34,760 nucleotides of DNA from contig JAFGFZ010000059.1 of the NCBI GenBank assembly GCA_016930815.1, positions 1 through 34,760 of the forward strand, written 5' to 3'. The notes beneath the pieces were generated by a model, which had not been told where the DNA came from, searched no databases, and saw only the letters and a program-made list of their open reading frames with translations. The position numbers were made by a program, and so were the translations under genes. This stretch comes from Pirellulales bacterium. Its GTDB lineage: Bacteria; Planctomycetota; Planctomycetia; Pirellulales; Lacipirellulaceae. Of this stretch, positions 351-34,710 are shown one piece after another (position 1 is the first letter of the stretch; each line of letters starts with the position of its first letter).

Positions 351-1220
351 ATGCGGTTAATAATCTGTGGCTTGAGTGTTTTCGCCGTTGTACTCGGTTC
401 TGTTTGGGCTGGAGAACCGAGTGAGGACCAGACCAAACCGTCCCAGGAATCGCCCGAGATCCAACCTGAGCCCACCGGGCATCGCGTCAATGACCTGGAG
501 CGGCAGCGATTTATTTGTTGCTTGAAGAACCGGCAAGCCAATGAATTGGCTGAAGTGATGCATAACTTGATGCAAGCCGACGGCAGCCTTGATGCTCGCG
601 TTATTCCAGATCCTTCCAGCAATCAGATCATCGTGACGTGTGCCCCGAAAGCACGGTCGCAAGTGATGGAGATGCTGAGTCAATTGGATCGGCCTCCGGC
701 ACAAATCCATTTCGAATTTCTGATTCTGCAGGGGGAGTACGACATCAAGGATACGAAACCAGCAGAGATAATCCAAAAACTCCGCGAGCTTCGGGACTCA
801 GGTCAGGCTACCGGACTCGTGAGCGTGCAGGTCAGAGCGATTAGCAATCAGCATGTGAAGATGCAATTGGGGAATCGGCGACCGGTCATCATGTCAACCC
901 AGATGTCGCGCGGTGGGCGGTCGAATTCGGTCAGCTTCGAAGATGTGGGTTGTTTAATCTCATTCCAACCTGTATCCTTCGACAGCGAGAATATTATTCT
1001 CCAACTGGAATATGAGTCATCCTACCCTGGTACCGAAGCGGATGGTGTGATCTTATCCGAGCAGGCGGATGGCGATCCGGTCAAAATTCCAAATGTTTAT
1101 CGAAACACAGTCAATACAATCCTCCGCTTGAAAAATGGGCAGCCGGAAGTCGTCCGCTTGTCTCAGGACACGAAGAACCAAGTGATGATCGCAATCACCG
1201 GCACGATTGTACCAGAATAG
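351..1220 (+). CDS. Short exported secretin-like protein (NolW-type N domain plus partial secretin domain)
   Basis: A 289-residue protein. The ATG is preceded by AAGGGGGTGA (339-348), one mismatch from a full Shine-Dalgarno sequence, which supports this start. Residues 1-20 form a Sec signal peptide (MRLIICGLSVFAVVLGSVWA). Residues about 60-125 resemble the secretin N1/NolW fold: KNRQANELAEVMHNLM, then VIPDPSSNQIIVT, then a helix and SQLDRPPAQIHFEFLIL, the strand that normally leads into the secretin beta domain. Residues about 160-289 look like part of that domain (VKMQLGNRRPVIMS, VSFEDVGCLISFQPV, VMIAITGTIVP). Full secretins are at least 400 residues and have VPDGGTV and VPLLSKVPxxxxLF segments; neither is visible here. 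It is therefore either a reduced secretin or a periplasmic partner of one. Function is inferred; the fold assignment is moderately sure. Confidence 0.7.
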   Translation: MRLIICGLSVFAVVLGSVWAGEPSEDQTKPSQESPEIQPEPTGHRVNDLERQRFICCLKNRQANELAEVMHNLMQADGSLDARVIPDPSSNQIIVTCAPKARSQVMEMLSQLDRPPAQIHFEFLILQGEYDIKDTKPAEIIQKLRELRDSGQATGLVSVQVRAISNQHVKMQLGNRRPVIMSTQMSRGGRSNSVSFEDVGCLISFQPVSFDSENIILQLEYESSYPGTEADGVILSEQADGDPVKIPNVYRNTVNTILRLKNGQPEVVRLSQDTKNQVMIAITGTIVPE

Positions 1221-20427: not shown

Positions 20428-23298
20428 TCACCACCTGATCTCGAGTCGAATCCATTCGTAGGATTGGAATCGAAGTGGAACGGAATTGGCCGTGGGTGAC
20501 ACATCGTCAAGAGGTTCCCCGGCTAGTGTCATTCTCCGAGCGGCAGATAGATTTCGGGCACAGTGGAAGCGTGTTTGGGTAGGTTGGCCCATTGTTTCGA
20601 TGAGATCGAAGATCAAACCTCGGTCATTACCCACCAGTGGCATCGCGTGAACCATAGCGATATTTGGTGCCTCGATGTGAAAGAGCCAGGCGGCTTTTCC
20701 ACCAGCAGGTTGCCCGGAAACAGCGAAACATGGATCCAATCCCTGACAAATTGCTTCGGACATGCTCATCAGTTGCGTCGCGGGGATTCCGATCCCAATG
20801 GCACATCGAAACCGGCGCTGCGATTCCCCGTCCGGGATGAGCAGTGTATCGAGCATGCGTGGACCGGTGAGACGATGGATGGGAAGCCCAAGCGGAAAGA
20901 GGGTCCAGCCGCCTGACGGGCGTGATAAATCGATGAAATCGGTTGCAAGGATCCATTCTTGATCCGTGGATTGGCACATGCCATTGAGACTGCGATAGAT
21001 ATCATGATCGCATTCGGGCCAGGCGAAACGAAGTGCATAATACGATTCGTGGCAGGACGGGATAGGTAACTGGTGAGGAGTCAATTCGATCTCGATAAGC
21101 ACATAGCGGCAAGCACGATAAAGCCGTGTCGATTGCCGAAATTCGGCTAGGACCGTTCCGTTGCGATTGAGTAATTGCCCTTGTGCCGTGATTTCACCAC
21201 AGGCTCCATTTGCCGCTGTCACATCGACGGAATTCGCTGCCATCACCGAATATTCGACAACCTTCGAATTCGCTTGGCGGAAAGCAATCTGCTGGGCCAC
21301 CCGAGGCCTGCGATCGCCATAGCTTCCCATGCCTCGAATCGCACCCGTTGCGCGATCGAATTGGATATGAACTAGCTCATTTTGCAGCCGCAGTTCCTCT
21401 GCAAGGTGTGCCGGTGGTGGTGGGGGAGGCCGATTTTCCAGCCAGGCGAAACCATAGGCTGGTACATTCGCAAGATAGCCTGATGGAACCGGCCCCCACG
21501 GAGATATTCCCTTGGGACCGAAGGGATCAAAGACAGGGAGTGTTTGTGCACGGCCAGACGGATTGACGACCAGGAAGCCCTGATCCAATGCGGGTGTATC
21601 CTGGTGTGCCGGGAGCACCACTTGCCGGAGCAGGCCGGCCATGGATTCAGTATCTTCCACGATTTGGCCAGGCGCTTCACCGGAATCGTTCACAAGGGTT
21701 TCCGGATCGCTATGCCAGGGCGTTGATCCTCCAGCGGCAACCACCATGGCGGCAAGTTTATTTTGCCGTTTCTTTCTGGCATGATCTTCCCAAGCCCAGA
21801 TCGACGCCGAGATCGCGTTTTGCCTTGAAACCAATCGGGAGTAGGCATACGGATCCGTGTCCGGTTTGGGTTGCGTCACGATGTCCGTACCGGCCGAAGT
21901 CTCAAAGAACGAATCGAGTGTGATAAAGGTGCCCAGTGCCGAAGTGAATTGGGTTGCCAGGCGGAGGTCCTCATACCACGGAGACATGGCACCAGGCCAG
22001 CTGGCGAACAGGAGCGTCGCCACATAATCGCGGTCCATTGCTTTGCTGGCATCATGGCCGAAGTTGATTAAGGCTTTGGCCGCCGCGGCATCCGTGGGCA
22101 CCCGCCACAAGGCATCGATTCGAACATTTGCGCAACCGGTCCAATGCGTTTTCGACTGTCGTGCATGGGGTAATTTTCTCCCATCAAAGGTCGCGACCAA
22201 GGCACCCTTGAAACCAAAACTGGCCAGGATCTGGGGCAGGATTGGCAGCACATGAAAATGGCGACTGGCATAAATCCGGGGTGTATGGCCGAGGATTCGT
22301 TCTACCACGGCCCGGCCATGGGCTAGATTCTCAACGCAAGCATTCGGCGCTGCCAACTCCCAATCCATTTCTTCGTATTCGCCACCGATCAGACTCGCGG
22401 TGCCCCGGTGGAGGGCATTCCGGAGCGCGTCGATACTCGCCGGCTCCGTCCTCGCCATCTTTTCAATGGTTTTCCCAGTGGCCAGGACATTGGTTGGGGT
22501 TGGTTCATTGAGCCGATCCCGAAAAGATGGTCCCCCCAGATTGGAATCAACGAGTATCACGTCAATCAAATAGGATGTGGTTGGATAGATATAGTCCCGA
22601 GCGGCACTCAGAATATCGTAGGCTCGATATAAGTGGGCCCGAGCCGAATCCGCGTCCCCGGAAACGGCCGTTGTTGCCGCGTCGCGAACGCATTCCTGGA
22701 ATTGGATGGTATCCAAATTGTTCGCATATTGCGTGTGGCGCGTCAGCACTTCGACCATCCAATAACTGTAGCCCAGGGCGAAAAATTCACGAATCAAATC
22801 GGTTTCGATCGTGGGGCGTGGATTCAATGGCCGTTGGACCGGATCCTTCCGGGGCTCGATGGGATCGAAACCGCTCGTCCTTGGATCGCATGCCCTCGGG
22901 GCCGTTCCCTGTTTGTCCCCCTGGTCGATCTCGGACACCGCCATGGTTGTGCCGGATGTTGTCAGGCCCGGGATTGCCTCAGGAATGCTCCATGGCCGAG
23001 GCATGAAATGGCGAACGATGACCGCTTGCCGACTGTCTGCATCGATCCGTTCCTGCCAGCCGGCTGGAATCCGGTTCTGGGATGGAGCCGGTAGGAGAAT
23101 GAGTGTATCCGGCAAGTATTCAGGAGGGGCGTCGGCTGGACGCCACGTCGGTAATCGACCGATCCGGGCAAGTAGCTCGGGATGCCAAGCAAGAGTCCAG
23201 GCGCCGAGCACCTCAGCCGCCTCCTGGCCGTTTAGGTCAACCGGGAAGTCGTCCAAGCTCGAATAGGGCATCAAAACGACGACATCACAGAAATCCAT
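20428..23298 (-). CDS. Large GH38/alpha-mannosidase-like protein lacking the usual catalytic motifs
   Basis: A 956-residue protein, taking the ATG at 23298 (MDFCDVVVLMPYSSLDDFP). The C-terminal part has the beta-sandwich pattern of glycoside hydrolase family 38 (LRLQNELVHIQFDRATGAIRGMGSYG), and the central part a helical region with GGEYEEMDWELAAPNA and YASRHFHVLPILPQILASFG. In GH38 the latter region reads WxxDxFGxSxxLPxIL and holds the Asp nucleophile; here that position has no Asp. The N-terminal HxHxD metal site is replaced by PYSSLDD. About 90 residues near 125-215 are disordered-looking. No signal peptide is obvious, so it is probably cytoplasmic. Family-level assignment is inferred from pattern; enzymatic activity is doubtful. 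It shares a transcript with cmk. Confidence 0.65.
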   Translation of the reverse strand: MDFCDVVVLMPYSSLDDFPVDLNGQEAAEVLGAWTLAWHPELLARIGRLPTWRPADAPPEYLPDTLILLPAPSQNRIPAGWQERIDADSRQAVIVRHFMPRPWSIPEAIPGLTTSGTTMAVSEIDQGDKQGTAPRACDPRTSGFDPIEPRKDPVQRPLNPRPTIETDLIREFFALGYSYWMVEVLTRHTQYANNLDTIQFQECVRDAATTAVSGDADSARAHLYRAYDILSAARDYIYPTTSYLIDVILVDSNLGGPSFRDRLNEPTPTNVLATGKTIEKMARTEPASIDALRNALHRGTASLIGGEYEEMDWELAAPNACVENLAHGRAVVERILGHTPRIYASRHFHVLPILPQILASFGFKGALVATFDGRKLPHARQSKTHWTGCANVRIDALWRVPTDAAAAKALINFGHDASKAMDRDYVATLLFASWPGAMSPWYEDLRLATQFTSALGTFITLDSFFETSAGTDIVTQPKPDTDPYAYSRLVSRQNAISASIWAWEDHARKKRQNKLAAMVVAAGGSTPWHSDPETLVNDSGEAPGQIVEDTESMAGLLRQVVLPAHQDTPALDQGFLVVNPSGRAQTLPVFDPFGPKGISPWGPVPSGYLANVPAYGFAWLENRPPPPPPAHLAEELRLQNELVHIQFDRATGAIRGMGSYGDRRPRVAQQIAFRQANSKVVEYSVMAANSVDVTAANGACGEITAQGQLLNRNGTVLAEFRQSTRLYRACRYVLIEIELTPHQLPIPSCHESYYALRFAWPECDHDIYRSLNGMCQSTDQEWILATDFIDLSRPSGGWTLFPLGLPIHRLTGPRMLDTLLIPDGESQRRFRCAIGIGIPATQLMSMSEAICQGLDPCFAVSGQPAGGKAAWLFHIEAPNIAMVHAMPLVGNDRGLIFDLIETMGQPTQTRFHCARNLSAARRMTLAGEPLDDVSPTANSVPLRFQSYEWIRLEIRW

Positions 23299-23365
23299 AG
23301 AGCGATGGGAGATATGGTGCAAAATCAAAAAGAGCCCGGAATATCGCGGAAAAAAGGAAATCCGC

Positions 23366-23770: not shown

Positions 23771-26140
23771 ATGGCAAAGAGCAATGCCATTTGGGGCATC
23801 GACATTGGCCAGTGCGCATTGAAAGCACTGCAGTGTCGTCCTCACGACAAGGATCCGAAACGGATTATTGCCGAATCGTTTGACTACATCGAGTATTCCA
23901 AGATTCTGAGCCAACCCGAAGCCGACCGTACCGAATTGGTTGCGGAAGCGCTAGCGCAATTCGTATCACGGAATGATCTATCGGGCGACCGGGTTGCGAT
24001 CTCGGTTCCTGGCCAGACTGGATTGGCCCGTTTTATCAAGCTGCCACCGGTCGAATCGAAAAAAATCCCGGATATCGTCAAGTACGAAGCACGGCAGCAG
24101 ATTCCCTTCTCACTCGAAGATGTTGTCTGGGATTACCAACAGCTTGCCGGAGGAAGTGAAGAGGAGGGCTATGTTCTGGAGACAGAGGTCGGTCTCTTTG
24201 CGATGAAACGGGATCAGGTATCCCGGTCACTCAAGCCGTTGAACGATGCTGGTATCGATATCGATGTGATCCAGCTTGCCCCGCTGGCCATTTATAACTT
24301 CCTCTGTTTTGATCTCCTGGACGACCTGCATAGCGGGGCACCCTACGATCCGCAGAATCCTCCTCCATCCACGGTGGTCATTTCGCTTGGTACTGACACG
24401 ACCGACCTGGTTGTAACGAACGGCTATCGCGTATGGCAGCGCAACATTCCGATCGGTGGCAATCATTTTACGAAAGCCCTGTCGAAGGAACTCAGGCTCA
24501 CCTTCTCGAAGGCGGAGCATTTGAAACGGCACGCCACCCAGGCGGACGATCCGAAGGCCGTCTTTCAAGCCATGCGGCCTGTCTTCAGCGATCTGTTGGC
24601 TGAGATCCAACGGTCCATCGGATACTTCACGAGCATCGACAAAACGGCCAGTATCGGCCAAATTGTGGCCTTAGGGAATGCAATGAAGTTGCCGGGCCTG
24701 CAACGTTACCTATCACAAAACCTGGAACAGACGGTTGTCCCAATCAAGGAATATCAGAATCTGGTGGGTGGTAGCGTCACGGCTGGCCCCCAGTTTAAAG
24801 AGAATATCCTGAGCTTCGCGGTCTCTTATGGTCTCTGCGTCCAAGGTCTTGGTTTGAGTGAACTTCGGACCAACCTGCTTCCGGAAGAGATCATCACGCA
24901 CCGGCTCATTCGTGCAAAGAAACCATGGATGGTTGCGGGAATTGCCGCCCTACTGGTCGGTTGCACGGTCAATTACATCGCGACCTTTGCATCGCTCAAG
25001 AGTGTCGATGTGGAGAAACCCCTGTATAAAACAGCGTTGGCGTCCGCCGATACGACCCAGCGCAAATCAACCGATCTGATGAGCCAATTCAAGGCGGCCC
25101 AGGACCAATTCATTCAGATTCAGGATATCGGAGACAATCTCGTCAGTAACGTTGAGGGGCGCCTGCGGTGGCTGGAGTTACTCAAGGCGATCAGTACGGC
25201 GCTCCCGAAGGAAGAAGCCGAACTGGATGACAGCCAGAATGTCTCGATGGAAGAACTGGCCAAAGCAATCAGTGAACGCGAGGTACTCCACATTCAGCGA
25301 CTCGATTGCCAGTACCTCGAAGATGTCTCCACGTGGTTTGCGGGTGTTGCCGAGGAATATCGCGTGGATTCGGCGAAGAATACCGAGGAGGGCAAGGCTT
25401 CTTCAGAGGCCACCCAACCAGCGGACGGCGCCGCATCGCCGGACGGCGCTGCGCCAGCGGACGATGGAACCGGAAATCCGGCGGGCGACGCAACGGCCTC
25501 GGCGCAAGCGAATCCGACCGAAGATCCCAACGCTGCCGCTGACACCAATCCACCAGACACCTCCGGAAGCGGATTCGCCGACGATGCATCCGCCCAAGGC
25601 GGTGGAACAACCGAGGGTCCCACCGGTCCCGGCTGGATCATCGAGTTGCGTGGATTTCATTATCACAATGCGGATATCGATAACGAAGGTGCCGAATTCA
25701 TTCGAAATACTTTCCTCAAAAATCTGACCGAAGGATCTGTTGAATTGCCCCCGCCTCCCGGGGATCCAACCCAGCCTGCCCCGCAAGAAGGAGAGGGCGA
25801 GACAGAGCTAATTCCCGTCCCGATGAAAGACCTTTCCATTTCTTACCCCGTGATTGTCTGGTATAGCGAGATCCGGGACCAATCGGTGAGCATGGGGGGC
25901 GATGAAGAGGCCCTTGCGGGTGCGGTAGGTCGAGAAGTGAATCCCCGGCAAGGACGCCAGCCGGGCAGTAATCAGCAGAACAACGCATTACCAGAACCTA
26001 AGATACTTAAATTACGGCGAATCAATTTCATTATCCAGTTTTGCTGGCAACCCAAAACACCAACCGAACGACTCAATCCAGAAAAAGCAACCAATGCAGC
26101 CATTCCAGATGATAGCAGCGATGGCACGACTGATTATTGA
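23771..26140 (+). CDS. PilM-PilN-like fusion, pilus/secretion inner-membrane assembly protein
   Basis: A 789-residue protein with AGAGG 7 bases before the ATG. Residues 1-360 are the actin-like PilM/FtsA fold: NAIWGIDIGQCALKALQCRP, ISVPGQTGLARFIKLPPVE, KYEARQQIPFSLEDVVWDYQ, VVISLGTDTTDLVVTNG and GGNHFTKALSKELRLTFSKAE. A transmembrane helix (about 385-405, MVAGIAALLVGCTVNYIATF) follows, then a helical, coiled-coil-like stretch, a Pro/Ala/Asp/Gly-rich linker (about 537-617) and a periplasmic domain to the end. PilM is normally cytosolic and binds the N-terminal tail of a separate PilN. Here the two are one chain, with the PilN-like part recognised by its position and topology, not by sequence. 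It is the first gene of a set in pilMNOPQ order. Confidence 0.85.
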   Translation: MAKSNAIWGIDIGQCALKALQCRPHDKDPKRIIAESFDYIEYSKILSQPEADRTELVAEALAQFVSRNDLSGDRVAISVPGQTGLARFIKLPPVESKKIPDIVKYEARQQIPFSLEDVVWDYQQLAGGSEEEGYVLETEVGLFAMKRDQVSRSLKPLNDAGIDIDVIQLAPLAIYNFLCFDLLDDLHSGAPYDPQNPPPSTVVISLGTDTTDLVVTNGYRVWQRNIPIGGNHFTKALSKELRLTFSKAEHLKRHATQADDPKAVFQAMRPVFSDLLAEIQRSIGYFTSIDKTASIGQIVALGNAMKLPGLQRYLSQNLEQTVVPIKEYQNLVGGSVTAGPQFKENILSFAVSYGLCVQGLGLSELRTNLLPEEIITHRLIRAKKPWMVAGIAALLVGCTVNYIATFASLKSVDVEKPLYKTALASADTTQRKSTDLMSQFKAAQDQFIQIQDIGDNLVSNVEGRLRWLELLKAISTALPKEEAELDDSQNVSMEELAKAISEREVLHIQRLDCQYLEDVSTWFAGVAEEYRVDSAKNTEEGKASSEATQPADGAASPDGAAPADDGTGNPAGDATASAQANPTEDPNAAADTNPPDTSGSGFADDASAQGGGTTEGPTGPGWIIELRGFHYHNADIDNEGAEFIRNTFLKNLTEGSVELPPPPGDPTQPAPQEGEGETELIPVPMKDLSISYPVIVWYSEIRDQSVSMGGDEEALAGAVGREVNPRQGRQPGSNQQNNALPEPKILKLRRINFIIQFCWQPKTPTERLNPEKATNAAIPDDSSDGTTDY

Positions 26141-26177
26141 AAGGGTTGATTGCTTCCAATAAAGCAGGAGCGGAACC

Positions 26178-27830
26178 ATGGAACAGATACGAGCTATTCT
26201 CCAATTTTTCAAGAAACAACACTTCTGGCTCCTCAACGCCCTGATCATTGTCACGGCGATCGTCTCATGGTTTCTCGCGGCTCGATCGTTGAACGATACC
26301 TTTTCCAAAAATCGGAACACGATCGAAACCGCATTGAAGGCACAACAACAGATTGCCGCAACCAACCCCCATCACAATGATAAGACTATCGAAGCTCAAC
26401 GCCAGGAAGTCGCTCAACTCCGAATGCATACCCTTGAAGTATGGCAAAAACTCTACAAGCGCCAGCAGGAAGAAGTCTTGAAATGGCCCGCTCAATTGGG
26501 CAATGCATTTATCAACATGATCTCCAAGTATAAGTTTGGCGATGAGCTTACCGCCGTGGACAAGCCATATCTCGCTCGGTATCGAAACTATATCCAAGAT
26601 GCTGCCCGCAAGTTACCAGAAATCGTCCAGGCGAAAACCAAGGATGTCGACATGAGTTTGGGCGGCGAGCTTTATGGTGAAAGAGGCGGTTATGGGCAGC
26701 AAACTCCAGGTGGCCCGGAAGATGCGGCCGTCGAGGAGGATTACGTGGTGCTGTGGCCAAGTTACCAGGAACAGATCGAAGGGCGCCTCGTCTGGTCCCA
26801 AACGCCCACTTCGATGCAGATGTGGATTGCCCAGGAGGATCTCTGGGTGATTGAAACCATGCTGAGGGCGATCGCGGCCGTGAATCGAGATACGGGGGCA
26901 ACGGGATACCACGATGCGGCAATCCGAGAAATCCATTCCCTGGAGATCGGCCGAGAAGCTGCGATGGCCCGCAACACGCAGGGACGACTATTCCAGAAGC
27001 GTTCCAGTCAAGGACCGGGAATGCCAAGTGAAGGGGGAGGGTATGGACGCGGTATGGAGGGCGGGGGCTATGAGGGACGCAGTTTACAGGACTTGGGACG
27101 GGGCGCCGAAGGCGGCATCGGGCGTGCCATGCCCGGTATGGAAGGAAGGGGCGATCCGTACGGATACGGCGCTGGCGGTGAAACCAGCGGTTCCGAAGAT
27201 GGTTCCACCATGGATGCCAACGCCTGGCTCCTCCAAGGGCGCTACCTGGACGCGGAAGGGAAGCCCAGCGATGGCACGGAAGAAAGTGGCAACATGGGAT
27301 ACAAAAAATTACCCGTTCGAATGGTCCTGACCATGGACCAACGCATGCTGTCCAAGTTGGTCATTGAATGTGCCAACGCCCCCCTACCCATTGAAGTCGA
27401 GGAAATTCGTGCAAATGTCGGATCCGCGCAAGAGATGGGTAGCAGTGGCGCTAGTGGTTATGGTGAGGGTGGTGGTTCTCGTAGAGGCGGTTATGGAGAG
27501 AGTGGCTATGGAGGGTATGGCCCGGGCCGCGGCGGTATCATGCGAGGCAATGAAGGCGGTGGTGGAAGAAGTCTGCCGATGGGGGGTTCGGAGGGAGGCG
27601 GCATCTATGGTCGTGGCGGAAATGCCATGGAAGGATATGGGATGGACGATGCGGAAGAAATCGATATGAAGCCCAATCCGCAGATGATCCCGGTTATCCT
27701 GTATGGTACGATCTATATCTATAATCCTCCCAATCCAGAGGCAATGAAATTTCCATGGGAAGAAGGTGGGGCCACGGATAGCAACCAGCCGTTTGCGGGC
27801 CAGACCCAATCATCCAATTATTCGTCGTGA
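26178..27830 (+). CDS. Single-pass membrane protein in PilO position with Gly/Tyr-rich blocks
   Basis: A 550-residue protein with AGGAG (26167-26171) shortly before the ATG. Topology resembles PilO: a short cytosolic N terminus, one membrane helix (residues about 15-34, HFWLLNALIIVTAIVSWFLA), then a helical coiled-coil-like stretch to about 100 and a periplasmic part. Two low-complexity blocks (about 275-345 and 415-492) are made of Gly, Tyr, Arg, Glu and Ser, with GGYG, RGGYG and GGGYG units. An ordered segment between them (LPVRMVLTMDQRMLSKLVIE) looks like a ferredoxin-like strand-helix of PilO/GspM proteins. It follows pilMN by 37 bases. The PilO role is inferred from order and topology; sequence similarity could not be tested. 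Confidence 0.7.
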   Translation: MEQIRAILQFFKKQHFWLLNALIIVTAIVSWFLAARSLNDTFSKNRNTIETALKAQQQIAATNPHHNDKTIEAQRQEVAQLRMHTLEVWQKLYKRQQEEVLKWPAQLGNAFINMISKYKFGDELTAVDKPYLARYRNYIQDAARKLPEIVQAKTKDVDMSLGGELYGERGGYGQQTPGGPEDAAVEEDYVVLWPSYQEQIEGRLVWSQTPTSMQMWIAQEDLWVIETMLRAIAAVNRDTGATGYHDAAIREIHSLEIGREAAMARNTQGRLFQKRSSQGPGMPSEGGGYGRGMEGGGYEGRSLQDLGRGAEGGIGRAMPGMEGRGDPYGYGAGGETSGSEDGSTMDANAWLLQGRYLDAEGKPSDGTEESGNMGYKKLPVRMVLTMDQRMLSKLVIECANAPLPIEVEEIRANVGSAQEMGSSGASGYGEGGGSRRGGYGESGYGGYGPGRGGIMRGNEGGGGRSLPMGGSEGGGIYGRGGNAMEGYGMDDAEEIDMKPNPQMIPVILYGTIYIYNPPNPEAMKFPWEEGGATDSNQPFAGQTQSSNYSS

Positions 27831-27954
27831 AAATCGGGGTACGAAAGCTCGGCCGTTTGATAAACGCCGGAGGATATTCCGTGTTGGGAACCCAATCGTA
27901 CGTTCATGCGTCCAATCATTGGTTGGGCGTTTCCATGAACAAGGAGATGAGAAA

Positions 27955-30258
27955 ATGATGCGAGCCAACATGCAAGGCATGAGTGGACTTAAGGGCATTC
28001 TGCTCAAACATGGGGAAAAGATCGGCCTCAGTTTGATCGGCCTGGTCGTTGCCTGGTTCATCTACTCTTCCATCGGCCGGGAACGACTCCCCGAGGATCA
28101 ACCCCAAAAACTGGCTAGTCTCGTGAAAACGGCCAGCGACCATATGGGAGATACGACATGGGACCAATTGGATACGGAATATAAAAAGATAGCCTTGGCG
28201 GCCAAACCAAGCGGCGAGCCGATGAAGGAACTGCAAGCCAGTCATTATCCCAAGCTCCCATCGTTCGACACGCCCGTCATCCCACACCGGGAACCACGCC
28301 GCGATCCGATCCTGCTAACCGTGGCCGAATTGGAGGTCCATCCCGGCGCGGGCATCATCGCACACGTCGATGAAGAAGTTATGAAGAAACGTGAAGAAGC
28401 GGCTCGCATTGAAGAGGAGAAACAGCGGAAGGAGGAGGAGAAGAAACGCGACAGCGAAACGGAACCCGGCGAAGGCCGAAGTCCTTATGGCGATCGCGGT
28501 TATGGCGGCGAGGGAAGAGGCGGATATGGAGGCGAAGGAAGAGGCGGTTATGGCAGCCGGGGAGGATATGGCCAGGGCATGGATCGAGGGACCGGCCGTC
28601 GAGGCGGCGGCGGTTTGCTCGAAGGGGGTGGCCGCGGCGGTGCTTATGCCGGAGACGATCCGAATGTCCGTCCCATCGATATGGCGGTCTCCATGGAAGG
28701 GTATGTTCCCGACGGTACGGAACGCTATGACCTGACGTACTGGAATTGCATTGTCGGCAAGGTCCCCATCAAGAAACAGATCAAGGAATTTAGTAACGCT
28801 CTGCATAATACTTACAATTACGATCCTTCGATCGATTTTCCGAGTTATGAAATCTACCAGGTTGAAAGAAAAGAGATTACCGGCAGCGGTGCGTCAGAAT
28901 GGCAGAAGGTCAAGCCACGCGATCCGAAGACCAAGAACCTTTTCCCCTATGTAAACTATGATGTCCTTGTGAAGCTCCAGTGGGATTGGCCCACATCCAT
29001 GGAACCTGTCGTCGGCGATCAATACATCGATCCCTTGTTGACCTTCCCATTACCACCCGTTGTCGGCCATGGATGGGGGAAGGATGCAACGCATTCTGAC
29101 ATCCCGCTTTTTGATCCGGCTACCCTACCGGCGGATCAGAATCGTGAAGACCTGGAGGAAGATGATTCGCAAGACATGCCACTCGACGAGGATACCTTTG
29201 TCAGTGGTTCGGGGGATGATACGACGGGCAATTTCCGAGGGGGCCGCGGCGGCTATGGTGGCCTGGAGAGTGGCAGGGGCGGTGTCCGGAGGCCTGGCAT
29301 GCCGGGCGGCCGGTCCGGCTATGGTGGCTACGGTGAGGAGGGAATGACTCGCGGCCGCGGAGGGTATGGTGGCCGTGGCGGTATCGAAGGTGGTGTTCGC
29401 GATCCTTATGGCGGCCGCGGTATCGCCGGCCGCGGTGGCTACGGTGGCCGGGAGATGGGTGGCCGCGGTGGCTATGGCAGCCGCGGAATGGGTGCGATTG
29501 GCTATGGCATGATAGAAGAAACGGAATTCCTCCTCTTCCGATTCTTCGATTTCGATGTCCAACCCGGAAAGACCTATCAATATCGAGTCCGGCTCGTAGT
29601 CGCGGATCCGAACCACAATACTGATAAGCGTTTCCTTGCCCCTGAAGTACTCGAACGGCGGGCCGCGGTGGAACAAAAAAATAAGGGAAATCTGCCTTAC
29701 CGCTTGACGGAATGGAGTGAGCCGAGTGCGGCAGTTGGCGTCTCGCTTCCTGGACAGGTCCTGGCGGGCAAGGTCAATCCGGCTTCACAAAGCTCCCATC
29801 ATTCCGAACCGGCGGCGGGCTGGATTGTGACGTCGTTTGATGGGAATACGGCCGAGGAACTGATCGCCGAAGAAGAGCGAGTCTATCGGGGTTCCGTCGG
29901 TAATGTGTCCGTATCGGATGGCTGGGTTATCGCACCCAGTCGCGGTGAGCTGCATCGGAAAAAAGATTACCTTGTTCGAACGGGCGTCGTCATGATCGAC
30001 ATGTTTGGTGGAGAAAGACTTGACGGCAGCCGCGACATGACCATACCAGGTCAGGTCCTGCTGATGGACCCCTCGGGCCGCATGGTTATTCGGAACGAAC
30101 TGGAAGATGCCGGAAAGGTCGCCTTTTATCATCAACTTCTTGAGGAAGAGGTGGAACGGGAACGCGCCAATGAATCGGGAGACCGCCGGGGTGGTGAGGA
30201 AGGCCTCTTGGCCCCGCCGGGTGGAGGCCGAGGTGGGGGGCGTGGTGGCCGCCGTTAA
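27955..30258 (+). CDS. Single-pass membrane protein in PilP position with RGGYG repeats
   Basis: A 767-residue protein. The ATG at 27955 is chosen because AAGGAG (27941-27946) is 8 bases upstream; the long frame from 27766 overlaps the previous gene. One membrane helix near residues 20-42 (IGLSLIGLVVAWFIYSSIG) is followed by a Glu/Lys-rich helix (about 139-172) and the first Gly-rich block (176-232). Next comes an ordered domain (about 240-420), a second Gly-rich block (426-519) with RGGYG units, and a C-terminal region with a beta-rich segment FDFDVQPGKTYQYRVRLVV and a Gly/Arg-rich end. RGGYG occurs seven times. PilP is normally a short lipoprotein, so this is at best a positional equivalent. 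A strong terminator follows the stop codon. Confidence 0.72.
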   Translation: MMRANMQGMSGLKGILLKHGEKIGLSLIGLVVAWFIYSSIGRERLPEDQPQKLASLVKTASDHMGDTTWDQLDTEYKKIALAAKPSGEPMKELQASHYPKLPSFDTPVIPHREPRRDPILLTVAELEVHPGAGIIAHVDEEVMKKREEAARIEEEKQRKEEEKKRDSETEPGEGRSPYGDRGYGGEGRGGYGGEGRGGYGSRGGYGQGMDRGTGRRGGGGLLEGGGRGGAYAGDDPNVRPIDMAVSMEGYVPDGTERYDLTYWNCIVGKVPIKKQIKEFSNALHNTYNYDPSIDFPSYEIYQVERKEITGSGASEWQKVKPRDPKTKNLFPYVNYDVLVKLQWDWPTSMEPVVGDQYIDPLLTFPLPPVVGHGWGKDATHSDIPLFDPATLPADQNREDLEEDDSQDMPLDEDTFVSGSGDDTTGNFRGGRGGYGGLESGRGGVRRPGMPGGRSGYGGYGEEGMTRGRGGYGGRGGIEGGVRDPYGGRGIAGRGGYGGREMGGRGGYGSRGMGAIGYGMIEETEFLLFRFFDFDVQPGKTYQYRVRLVVADPNHNTDKRFLAPEVLERRAAVEQKNKGNLPYRLTEWSEPSAAVGVSLPGQVLAGKVNPASQSSHHSEPAAGWIVTSFDGNTAEELIAEEERVYRGSVGNVSVSDGWVIAPSRGELHRKKDYLVRTGVVMIDMFGGERLDGSRDMTIPGQVLLMDPSGRMVIRNELEDAGKVAFYHQLLEEEVERERANESGDRRGGEEGLLAPPGGGRGGGRGGRR
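28498..28554 (+). repeat. 24-bp coding repeat (GYGGEGRG units)
   Basis: Two 24-bp units (28498-28521 and 28522-28545) encode the same eight residues, followed by a partial third. The copies differ at synonymous third positions (ggc/gga, gag/gaa), which suggests that the peptide, not the DNA, is kept by selection. Confidence 0.75.
29428..29474 (+). repeat. Direct repeat within the second Gly-rich block
   Basis: GGCCGCGGTGGCTA occurs at 29428-29441 and 29461-29474, spaced exactly 11 codons apart. It encodes GRGGY in the same frame. It is part of the wider block 29230-29510 of degenerate RGGYG-coding repeats. Confidence 0.7.
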
Positions 30259-30280
30259 TCGGCTGCAATTTCGCAATTCC

Positions 30281-30316
30281 AAACCCCGGTCTCTTCCTCG
30301 GAAACCGGGGTTTTTT
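30281..30316 (+). terminator. Strong intrinsic terminator after the PilP-position gene
   Basis: AAACCCCGGT (30281-30290) pairs fully with ACCGGGGTTT (30304-30313) over a 13-base loop, and the T-run (30311-30316) begins in the stem. It lies 23 bases after the stop codon. It separates the pilMN-O-P genes from the secretin gene. Confidence 0.9.
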
Positions 30317-30392
30317 ATTCGCCAGCACCCATGCCGCCCGGTACGGAATGAAAAATTTACCGCCCATTTTGTAATCTTGCCAAAAAGTGGCC

Positions 30393-30421
30393 TTGACCGC
30401 TCTTTATGCGGGCAGTATTTT
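30393..30421 (+). promoter_or_regulatory. Candidate promoter of the secretin gene
   Basis: TTGACC (30393-30398), a 17-base spacer and TATTTT (30416-30421), just after the terminator. It predicts a leader of about 200 bases before the secretin TTG start. Confidence 0.5.
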
Positions 30422-30465
30422 CCCGCCGCTCGTCTTTCAATCGCGTGCACTTTGTCTTGGAATAT

Positions 30466-30580
30466 CCCCGTTCGGGGAACATGCGAACCACCTCATGCCG
30501 ATCCAATGGCGATTGCCACTGCGGCATGTGAAAAGAGACTAAGCACAAGGACGTGTAAGCGACGTGGCCATGAGGCCACG
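30466..30580 (+). promoter_or_regulatory. Structured leader of the secretin mRNA
   Basis: Two hairpins can form: CCCCG-TT-CGGGG (30466-30477) and a 7-bp perfect stem CGTGGCC-ATGA-GGCCACG (30563-30580). The second ends 33 bases before the AGGAG ribosome binding site at 30613-30617. No known riboswitch class was recognised. The rest of the gap 30259-30624 holds no gene. Confidence 0.4.
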
Positions 30581-30624
30581 CCATGCGCCGCGATGCGACG
30601 GCGCACCTCGAAAGGAGAATCGAG

Positions 30625-34710
<4,086 letters not shown>

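What the first reader, a model, noticed from the sequence alone, without database searches (positions are those of the whole stretch)
23771..34710. Remodelled pilMNOPQ-type machine
Gene order and topology match the classical pilMNOPQ set: PilM fold plus PilN-like membrane part, a PilO-like single-pass protein, a second single-pass protein, then a secretin. Every part is unusual: M and N are fused, O and P are two to four times the normal size with Gly-rich blocks, and Q has helical repeats and no visible AMIN domain. This may be a lineage-specific envelope machine (pilus, secretion or uptake of large polymers) rather than a standard type IV pilus.
Basis: partly seen in the sequence, partly recalled or inferred. 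Interest (0 to 1): 0.8.

Follow-up and report, generated by a model that had tools for sequence, protein, structure and literature searches.

The report
Planctomycete-type pilus assembly module, Gly-loop expanded
Four neighbouring genes encode the envelope-spanning part of a type IV pilus machine in a form shared with other planctomycetes and with the gut bacterium Akkermansia; in this lineage two of its parts have gained long glycine-rich loops, so it is an unusual version of a known machine, not a new one.

Summary
The four ORFs at 23771-34710 are real and their order is conserved. PilM/N-ORF2-ORF3 is adjacent in all 40 Pirellulales loci examined where the contig allows, and recognisable in other planctomycete classes; the secretin follows directly in 22 of 37. 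The first protein is a natural PilM-PilN fusion: a PilM domain, the PilN peptide motif (TNLLPEEI, aligned to RINLLP in an artificial PilM-PilN fusion crystal, 5eou), a transmembrane helix and a coiled coil. ORF2 is PilO-like: its model matches Amuc_1100 (Z 10.7) and PilO (Z 7.0), and 8 of 50 family members hit the Amuc_1100 model by sequence. ORF3 sits where PilP should, but no PilP signal was found; it carries an Fn3-like sandwich. The secretin has TPR-like repeats and no AMIN domain. This is the Amuc_1098-1101 arrangement of the PVC superphylum, enlarged by Gly-rich loops. Motor genes (pilB-pilT-pilB-pilC plus prepilins) form a second conserved cassette elsewhere, lacking M/N/O/P/Q. Best reading: the alignment subcomplex of a retractable type IVa-like pilus. 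New observation: Gly-rich loops of O and P co-vary in composition beyond phylogeny. New variant of a known kind.

The parts
23771..26140 (+). PilM-PilN fusion (789 aa): actin-like PilM domain (res. 1-366), PilN peptide, one TM helix, coiled coil, PilN-like periplasmic part
   Evidence: PilM_2 7e-30, Amuc_1101_fam 1.9e-59 over res. 1-483; PDB PilM 5e-35
24869..24892 (+). PilN cytoplasmic motif TNLLPEEI (T367, L369, P371 invariant in 16 sequences)
   Evidence: aligned to RINLLP of the PilM:PilN fusion crystal 5eou
24926..24994 (+). transmembrane helix of the M-N fusion (res. about 386-408)
   Evidence: hydrophobic stretch in alignment A1
26178..27830 (+). ORF2, PilO / Amuc_1100-like protein (550 aa): TM helix, coiled coil, ferredoxin-like domain
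   Evidence: AlphaFold2 model, Foldseek and VIA-align matches to Amuc_1100 and PilO, 8/50 members hit Amuc_1100_fam
26985..27215 (+). Gly-rich loop inside the ferredoxin-like domain of ORF2 (res. 270-346)
   Evidence: pLDDT below 50; a Gly-rich loop across the 50 aligned homologues
27414..27659 (+). Gly-rich loop between the last two strands of ORF2 (res. 413-494)
27955..30258 (+). ORF3, protein in the PilP position (767 aa): HxEK motif and TM helix, Fn3-like beta-sandwich, C-terminal beta domain
   Evidence: start with SD; AlphaFold2 model; Fn3-like matches Z about 8; N-terminal motif shared with compact homologues
28480..28650 (+). Gly-rich (RGGYGG) loop 1 of ORF3 (res. 176-232)
29161..29505 (+). 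Gly-rich loop 2 of ORF3 (res. 403-517)
30281..30318 (+). terminator-like hairpin and T-run between ORF3 and the secretin
   Evidence: MFE -18.9 kcal/mol, z -3.9, 0/200 shuffles as stable; the pattern scan finds it too, but its total count is not above chance
30625..34710 (+). PilQ-like secretin (1361 aa), TTG start with SD, signal peptide
   Evidence: Secretin PF00263 7.9e-21; homologue in 60/60 relatives
30802..32290 (+). five TPR-like helical hairpins in the secretin N-terminus (approximate limits)
   Evidence: picked by eye and aligned with MAFFT; the compact homologue in L226 has Pfam TPR hits
34057..34665 (+). secretin channel domain

Best explanation
This is the alignment (trans-envelope) module of a retractable type IVa-like pilus in the form used by the PVC superphylum. 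SHOWN by sequence or predicted fold: a PilM-PilN fusion, a PilO-like protein, a single-pass protein in the PilP position, and a secretin with TPR-like repeats. INFERRED mechanism, by homology to the Neisseria, Myxococcus and Pseudomonas systems: the PilM domain sits under the inner membrane holding the PilN motif in its groove and contacts the PilB/PilT motors and PilC platform encoded in the second cassette; the N-like part and ORF2 pair in the periplasm as ferredoxin-like domains; ORF3 links this ring to the secretin; the secretin lets the pilus through the outer membrane, its TPR-like repeats standing in for AMIN or PilW functions. The Gly-rich loops of O and P are proposed to be flexible spacers that touch each other.
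For: Fusion: PilM HMMs and the PilN peptide motif aligned to crystal 5eou. O: structure and sequence matches to Amuc_1100 and PilO. Order conserved across the order and detectable in other classes. Compact M/N-O-P-Q operon in another planctomycete family. Only one PilM in the genome. A separate PilB-PilT-PilB-PilC-prepilin cassette, conserved in 9/9 relatives and without M/O/P/Q, complements this module. PilT family in 243/244 genomes of the phylum. Akkermansia locus Amuc_1098-1102: a secretin, an FtsA-like protein and proteins annotated as hypothetical, abundant in the envelope fraction (PMC5332112, PMC4960237).
Against: No physical or genetic link between the two cassettes was tested. ORF3 has no detectable PilP homology. 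The PilN-like periplasmic domain was not recognised by any model. G038 (99% complete) has PilT and the secretin but no PilM hit, so the parts can separate. The Foldseek E-values for ORF2 are weak (best 0.024); the argument there is specificity (the ten best hits are all Amuc_1100, followed by PilO).
Confidence: 0.8

Rival explanations
1. It is the L-M-C-D platform of a type II secretion system: in T2SS, GspL is itself a PilM-PilN fusion, so M/N-O-P-Q could equally be read as L-M-C-D serving the several GspE/GspF/secretin clusters of this genome.
For: GspL (PulL) corresponds to fused PilM and PilN (PMC10191384). The genome has several GspE/secretin contigs but a single PilM-type protein.
Against: The actin-like domain passes the pilM model cut-off and no GspL model is hit; the N motif is TNLLP as in PilN; the order has one conserved PilB-PilT-PilC-prepilin cassette that needs such a module.
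Confidence: 0.12
2. A lineage-specific envelope machine for uptake or export of large polymers, linked to the crateriform structures and their pili-like fibres, in which the Gly-rich parts make a polymer-handling conduit.
For: Crateriform structures join outer and inner membrane, carry 12 nm fibres, and the fibres bind dextran in Planctopirus and Gemmata (PMC5394234). O and P loops are expanded in the class that has such structures and their compositions co-vary.
Against: No gene link to such structures; compact versions exist elsewhere in the phylum; the parts are those of T4P. P. limnophila tolerates loss of three pilQ-like genes, and the section read describes no phenotype (PMC11958385).
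Confidence: 0.08

Closest known systems
Akkermansia Amuc_1098-1101 locus (NCBIfam Amuc_1098, Amuc_1100 and Amuc_1101 families)
   Same: neighbouring genes for a secretin with N-terminal TPRs, a PilO-like protein and a PilM-type protein whose family model (608 positions) is long enough for a fusion; same relative order by locus number
   Different: identity too low for the equivalog cut-offs (202 of 650 bits for M/N); O and P here are larger with Gly-rich loops; ORF3 matches no Amuc family
PilMNOPQ of type IVa pili (Pseudomonas, Myxococcus, Neisseria)
   Same: PilM fold, PilN peptide, PilO fold, secretin, gene order
   Different: M and N fused; no recognisable PilP; no AMIN detected, TPR-like repeats instead; motors and pilins in another cassette
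T2SS GspL-GspM-GspC-GspD
   Same: fused L (M+N), ferredoxin-like M, single-pass C position, secretin
   Different: PilM models hit, GspL models do not; PilT present in the genome

Membership tests
Type IVa pilus alignment subcomplex (PilMNOPQ) | cytoplasmic actin-like PilM | tested here: met
   pilM TIGR01175 146.6 bits over cut-off 133; PDB PilM 5e-35
Type IVa pilus alignment subcomplex (PilMNOPQ) | PilN N-terminal INLLP-type peptide that binds PilM, followed by TM and coiled coil | tested here: met
   TNLLPEEI aligned to RINLLP of 5eou; T367, L369 and P371 invariant
Type IVa pilus alignment subcomplex (PilMNOPQ) | PilN ferredoxin-like periplasmic domain | tested here: inconclusive
   no PilN model hit; only a similar strand-helix-strand pattern by eye; not folded
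Type IVa pilus alignment subcomplex (PilMNOPQ) | PilO: TM, coiled coil, ferredoxin-like fold | tested here: met
   Z 10.7 to Amuc_1100, 7.0 to PilO 2rjz, 5.5 to PilO 5uvr; Amuc_1100_fam in 8/50 members; the PilO Z values alone are modest
Type IVa pilus alignment subcomplex (PilMNOPQ) | PilP linking the inner-membrane ring to the secretin | tested here: inconclusive
   PF04351 not over cut-off in any of 60 genomes; Fn3-like fold matches only
Type IVa pilus alignment subcomplex (PilMNOPQ) | PilQ secretin | tested here: met
   PF00263 7.9e-21
Type IVa pilus alignment subcomplex (PilMNOPQ) | PilQ AMIN domain (usual, not universal) | tested here: not met
   no AMIN hit at E up to 1; TPR-like repeats instead
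Type IVa pilus alignment subcomplex (PilMNOPQ) | PilB, PilT, PilC and prepilins in the same genome | tested here: met
   contig C514 and 9/9 relatives
Amuc_1098-1101 equivalogs | score above NCBIfam equivalog cut-off | tested here: not met
   Amuc_1101_fam 202 of 650 bits; Amuc_1098_fam 52 of 750: homologous, not equivalogs
Type II secretion L-M-C-D | actin-like subunit recognised by GspL models | tested here: not met
   no GspL/T2SSL family among hits of the M/N protein
Type II secretion L-M-C-D | pseudopilins and GspE/F next to the module | tested here: not met
   none among the window proteins scanned and no PilB/PilC homologue near the module in relatives of the order

The most novel reading that the evidence does not exclude
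The Gly-rich loops of the PilO-like and PilP-position proteins are co-evolving, mutually sticky low-complexity regions that form a flexible or phase-separating collar in the wide planctomycete periplasm, turning a pilus alignment complex into an elastic envelope spacer that may be the core of the crateriform structures.
Probability: 0.12. Interest if true: 0.8.

Novelty: new variant of a known kind. Interest (0 to 1): 0.42.

Why it matters
It gives a concrete gene set for the pili-like fibres seen on planctomycetes; two of the four genes (ORF2 and ORF3) match no Pfam family and would be annotated as hypothetical. It ties these to the Akkermansia locus whose protein Amuc_1100 is studied as an immune modulator, and supports reading that protein as a PilO-like part of a pilus machine. 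The split of motor and envelope cassettes, the natural PilM-PilN fusion and the co-varying Gly-rich loops are directly testable in the genetically tractable Planctopirus limnophila.

Tried and rejected
Pfam, NCBIfam and PDB profile searches with ORF3 alignments, with the compact P homologues, and the PilP family in 60 genomes gave nothing usable. PDB profile searches with ORF2 and compact O alignments gave only chance hits. Foldseek with the whole ORF3 model gave mainly antibodies and Fn3 modules; no PilP or GspC chain was among the rows shown, which is not evidence of absence. Using phylum-wide co-occurrence of PilM/N with PilT as a link failed because PilT is nearly universal. Promoter and terminator pattern scans are at chance level overall; only the hairpin after ORF3 stands out by its folding energy. 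Considered and rejected: chance ORFs or an assembly artefact (conserved order in 40 loci), and a specialised system absent from most relatives (M/N present in 57 of 60 relatives).

Full report
WHAT IS THERE. The window is a whole contig (C471) of a draft genome of 5.55 Mb in 528 contigs, so nothing lies beyond its right end in this assembly. Four genes run left to right at 23771-26140, 26178-27830, 27955-30258 and 30625-34710 (the last two starts corrected from Shine-Dalgarno positions). A strong hairpin with a T-run lies between the third and fourth (-18.9 kcal/mol, z -3.9), so the secretin is probably a separate transcription unit (inference). The close relatives with names are Pirellulales and other planctomycetes.

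FIRST GENE. Pfam and NCBIfam identify PilM and the PDB profile search finds solved PilM chains. The match to crystal 5eou, an engineered fusion of PilM with the PilN N-terminus, runs on into the PilN peptide: RINLLP against the family's RTNLLP. Residues T367, L369 and P371 are invariant in 16 relatives. A hydrophobic helix and a probable coiled coil follow. The closest curated family is Amuc_1101 of Akkermansia (202 bits over residues 1-483), below its equivalog cut-off. So the protein is a natural M-N fusion, as GspL is in type II secretion (PMC10191384), but recognised by PilM and not GspL models. The PilN-like periplasmic domain itself was not confirmed.

SECOND GENE. No family was found by single-sequence search. 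The AlphaFold2 model (mean pLDDT 72.7, most of the folded core above 90) has a TM helix, coiled coil and a ferredoxin-like domain with the Gly-rich segments as loops. The ten best Foldseek hits in the PDB are all Amuc_1100 chains, followed by PilO of Myxococcus and Pseudomonas (E-values weak, best 0.024). VIA-align gives Z 10.7 (rmsd 7.1, 179 residues) and 10.1 (rmsd 4.0, 168 residues) for Amuc_1100 and 7.0 (rmsd 4.0, 117 residues) for PilO. Independently, 8 of 50 homologues hit the Amuc_1100 family by sequence, best 7.9e-4.

THIRD GENE. A short cytoplasmic N-terminus with an HxEK motif, a TM helix, and a periplasmic part with two long Gly-rich loops. The model (mean pLDDT 74.3) contains an Fn3-like sandwich that seems to be built from residues about 117-138 and 526-600 (best Z 8.2, rmsd 2.8, 102 residues) and a further beta-rich part. 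PilP was not over cut-off in any of 60 relatives. Its role as PilP equivalent is by position and topology only.

FOURTH GENE. A secretin with N-terminal TPR-like hairpins and no AMIN hit. The compact homologue in another family has Pfam TPR hits, and Akkermansia PilQ is described with three N-terminal TPRs (PMC4960237). Every one of 60 relatives has a secretin match, most of them to nearly the whole channel half, but it follows ORF3 directly in only 22 of 37 assessable loci.

CONSERVATION. M/N-O-P are adjacent in all 40 relatives of the order examined with enough sequence, usually with cmk, and often a GH38-like gene, divergent upstream. Profiles of O and P recognise the genes next to M/N in the rest of the class and, more weakly, in other classes. 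One planctomycete family has a compact operon, M/N 582, O 301, P 266, Q 736 aa, whose O and P match the profiles at best at 4.8e-9 and 4.8e-6 in a set of 37 ORFs. The large Gly-rich form is therefore most simply a derived expansion within the class (inference).

PARTNERS. In this genome contig C514 carries pilB2-pilT-pilB-pilC and prepilin-like genes but no M/N/O/P or secretin. The same cassette is present in 9 of 9 complete or nearly complete relatives tested, again without M/N/O/P/Q within about 9 kb (some genes masked by antisense ORFs). No pilB/T/C lies beside the M/N-O-P module in the relatives of the order. The two cassettes complement each other, which is the main reason to call the whole a T4aP-like pilus. 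One relative, G038, has PilT and the secretin but no PilM hit and is unexplained.

GLY-RICH LOOPS. Loops of O and P hold about 30% Gly against 5-7% outside. Across 41 genomes their compositions co-vary (Met rho 0.84, Gly 0.79, Tyr 0.75). After removing PilM distance the partial Mantel r is 0.48 (p 0.0005) for O-P against 0.18 and 0.21 for O and P with the M/N linker. This suggests that the two sets of loops share a selective environment or touch; genome-wide habits of low-complexity sequence have not been excluded.

FUNCTION AND LITERATURE. Planctomycetes show pili-like fibres on crateriform structures, and the fibres bind dextran (PMC5394234). Three pilQ-like genes of P. limnophila were deleted and found dispensable; the section read describes no phenotype (PMC11958385). 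A systematic study of type IV filaments does not mention planctomycetes or the PVC group in its main text (PMC6668835). The mechanism given under Best explanation is inferred by homology.

VERDICT. Observation confirmed; interpretation partly supported; a new variant of a known kind, of moderate interest.

Noticed in passing
window 351-1220: A second secretin-type ORF (289 aa, Secretin_N plus part of the Secretin domain) at the left contig end, followed by a 3-keto-disaccharide hydrolase; short or cut for a secretin.
   Followed up: partly
window 20428-23328 (-): Weak GH38/GH57-like protein (966 aa) next to cmk, divergent from the pil module and conserved there in many relatives; its link to the module is unknown.
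   Followed up: no
L224 14641-17229, L225 1412-4030 and others: Many relatives carry a second, diverged PilM-type protein of about 740-890 aa (25-33% identity) at another locus; it may be a GspL-like paralogue.
   Followed up: no
G000 C69, C290 (L072, L076): Other secretins of this genome are also very long (open frames of 1392 and 1316 aa), so oversize secretins are not special to this module.
   Followed up: no
G038: A 99% complete relative has the secretin homologue and PilT but no PilM hit.
   Followed up: partly
L223 2969-10712: In one planctomycete of another class the M/N locus is followed by three consecutive ORFs that each match the window secretin.
   Followed up: no
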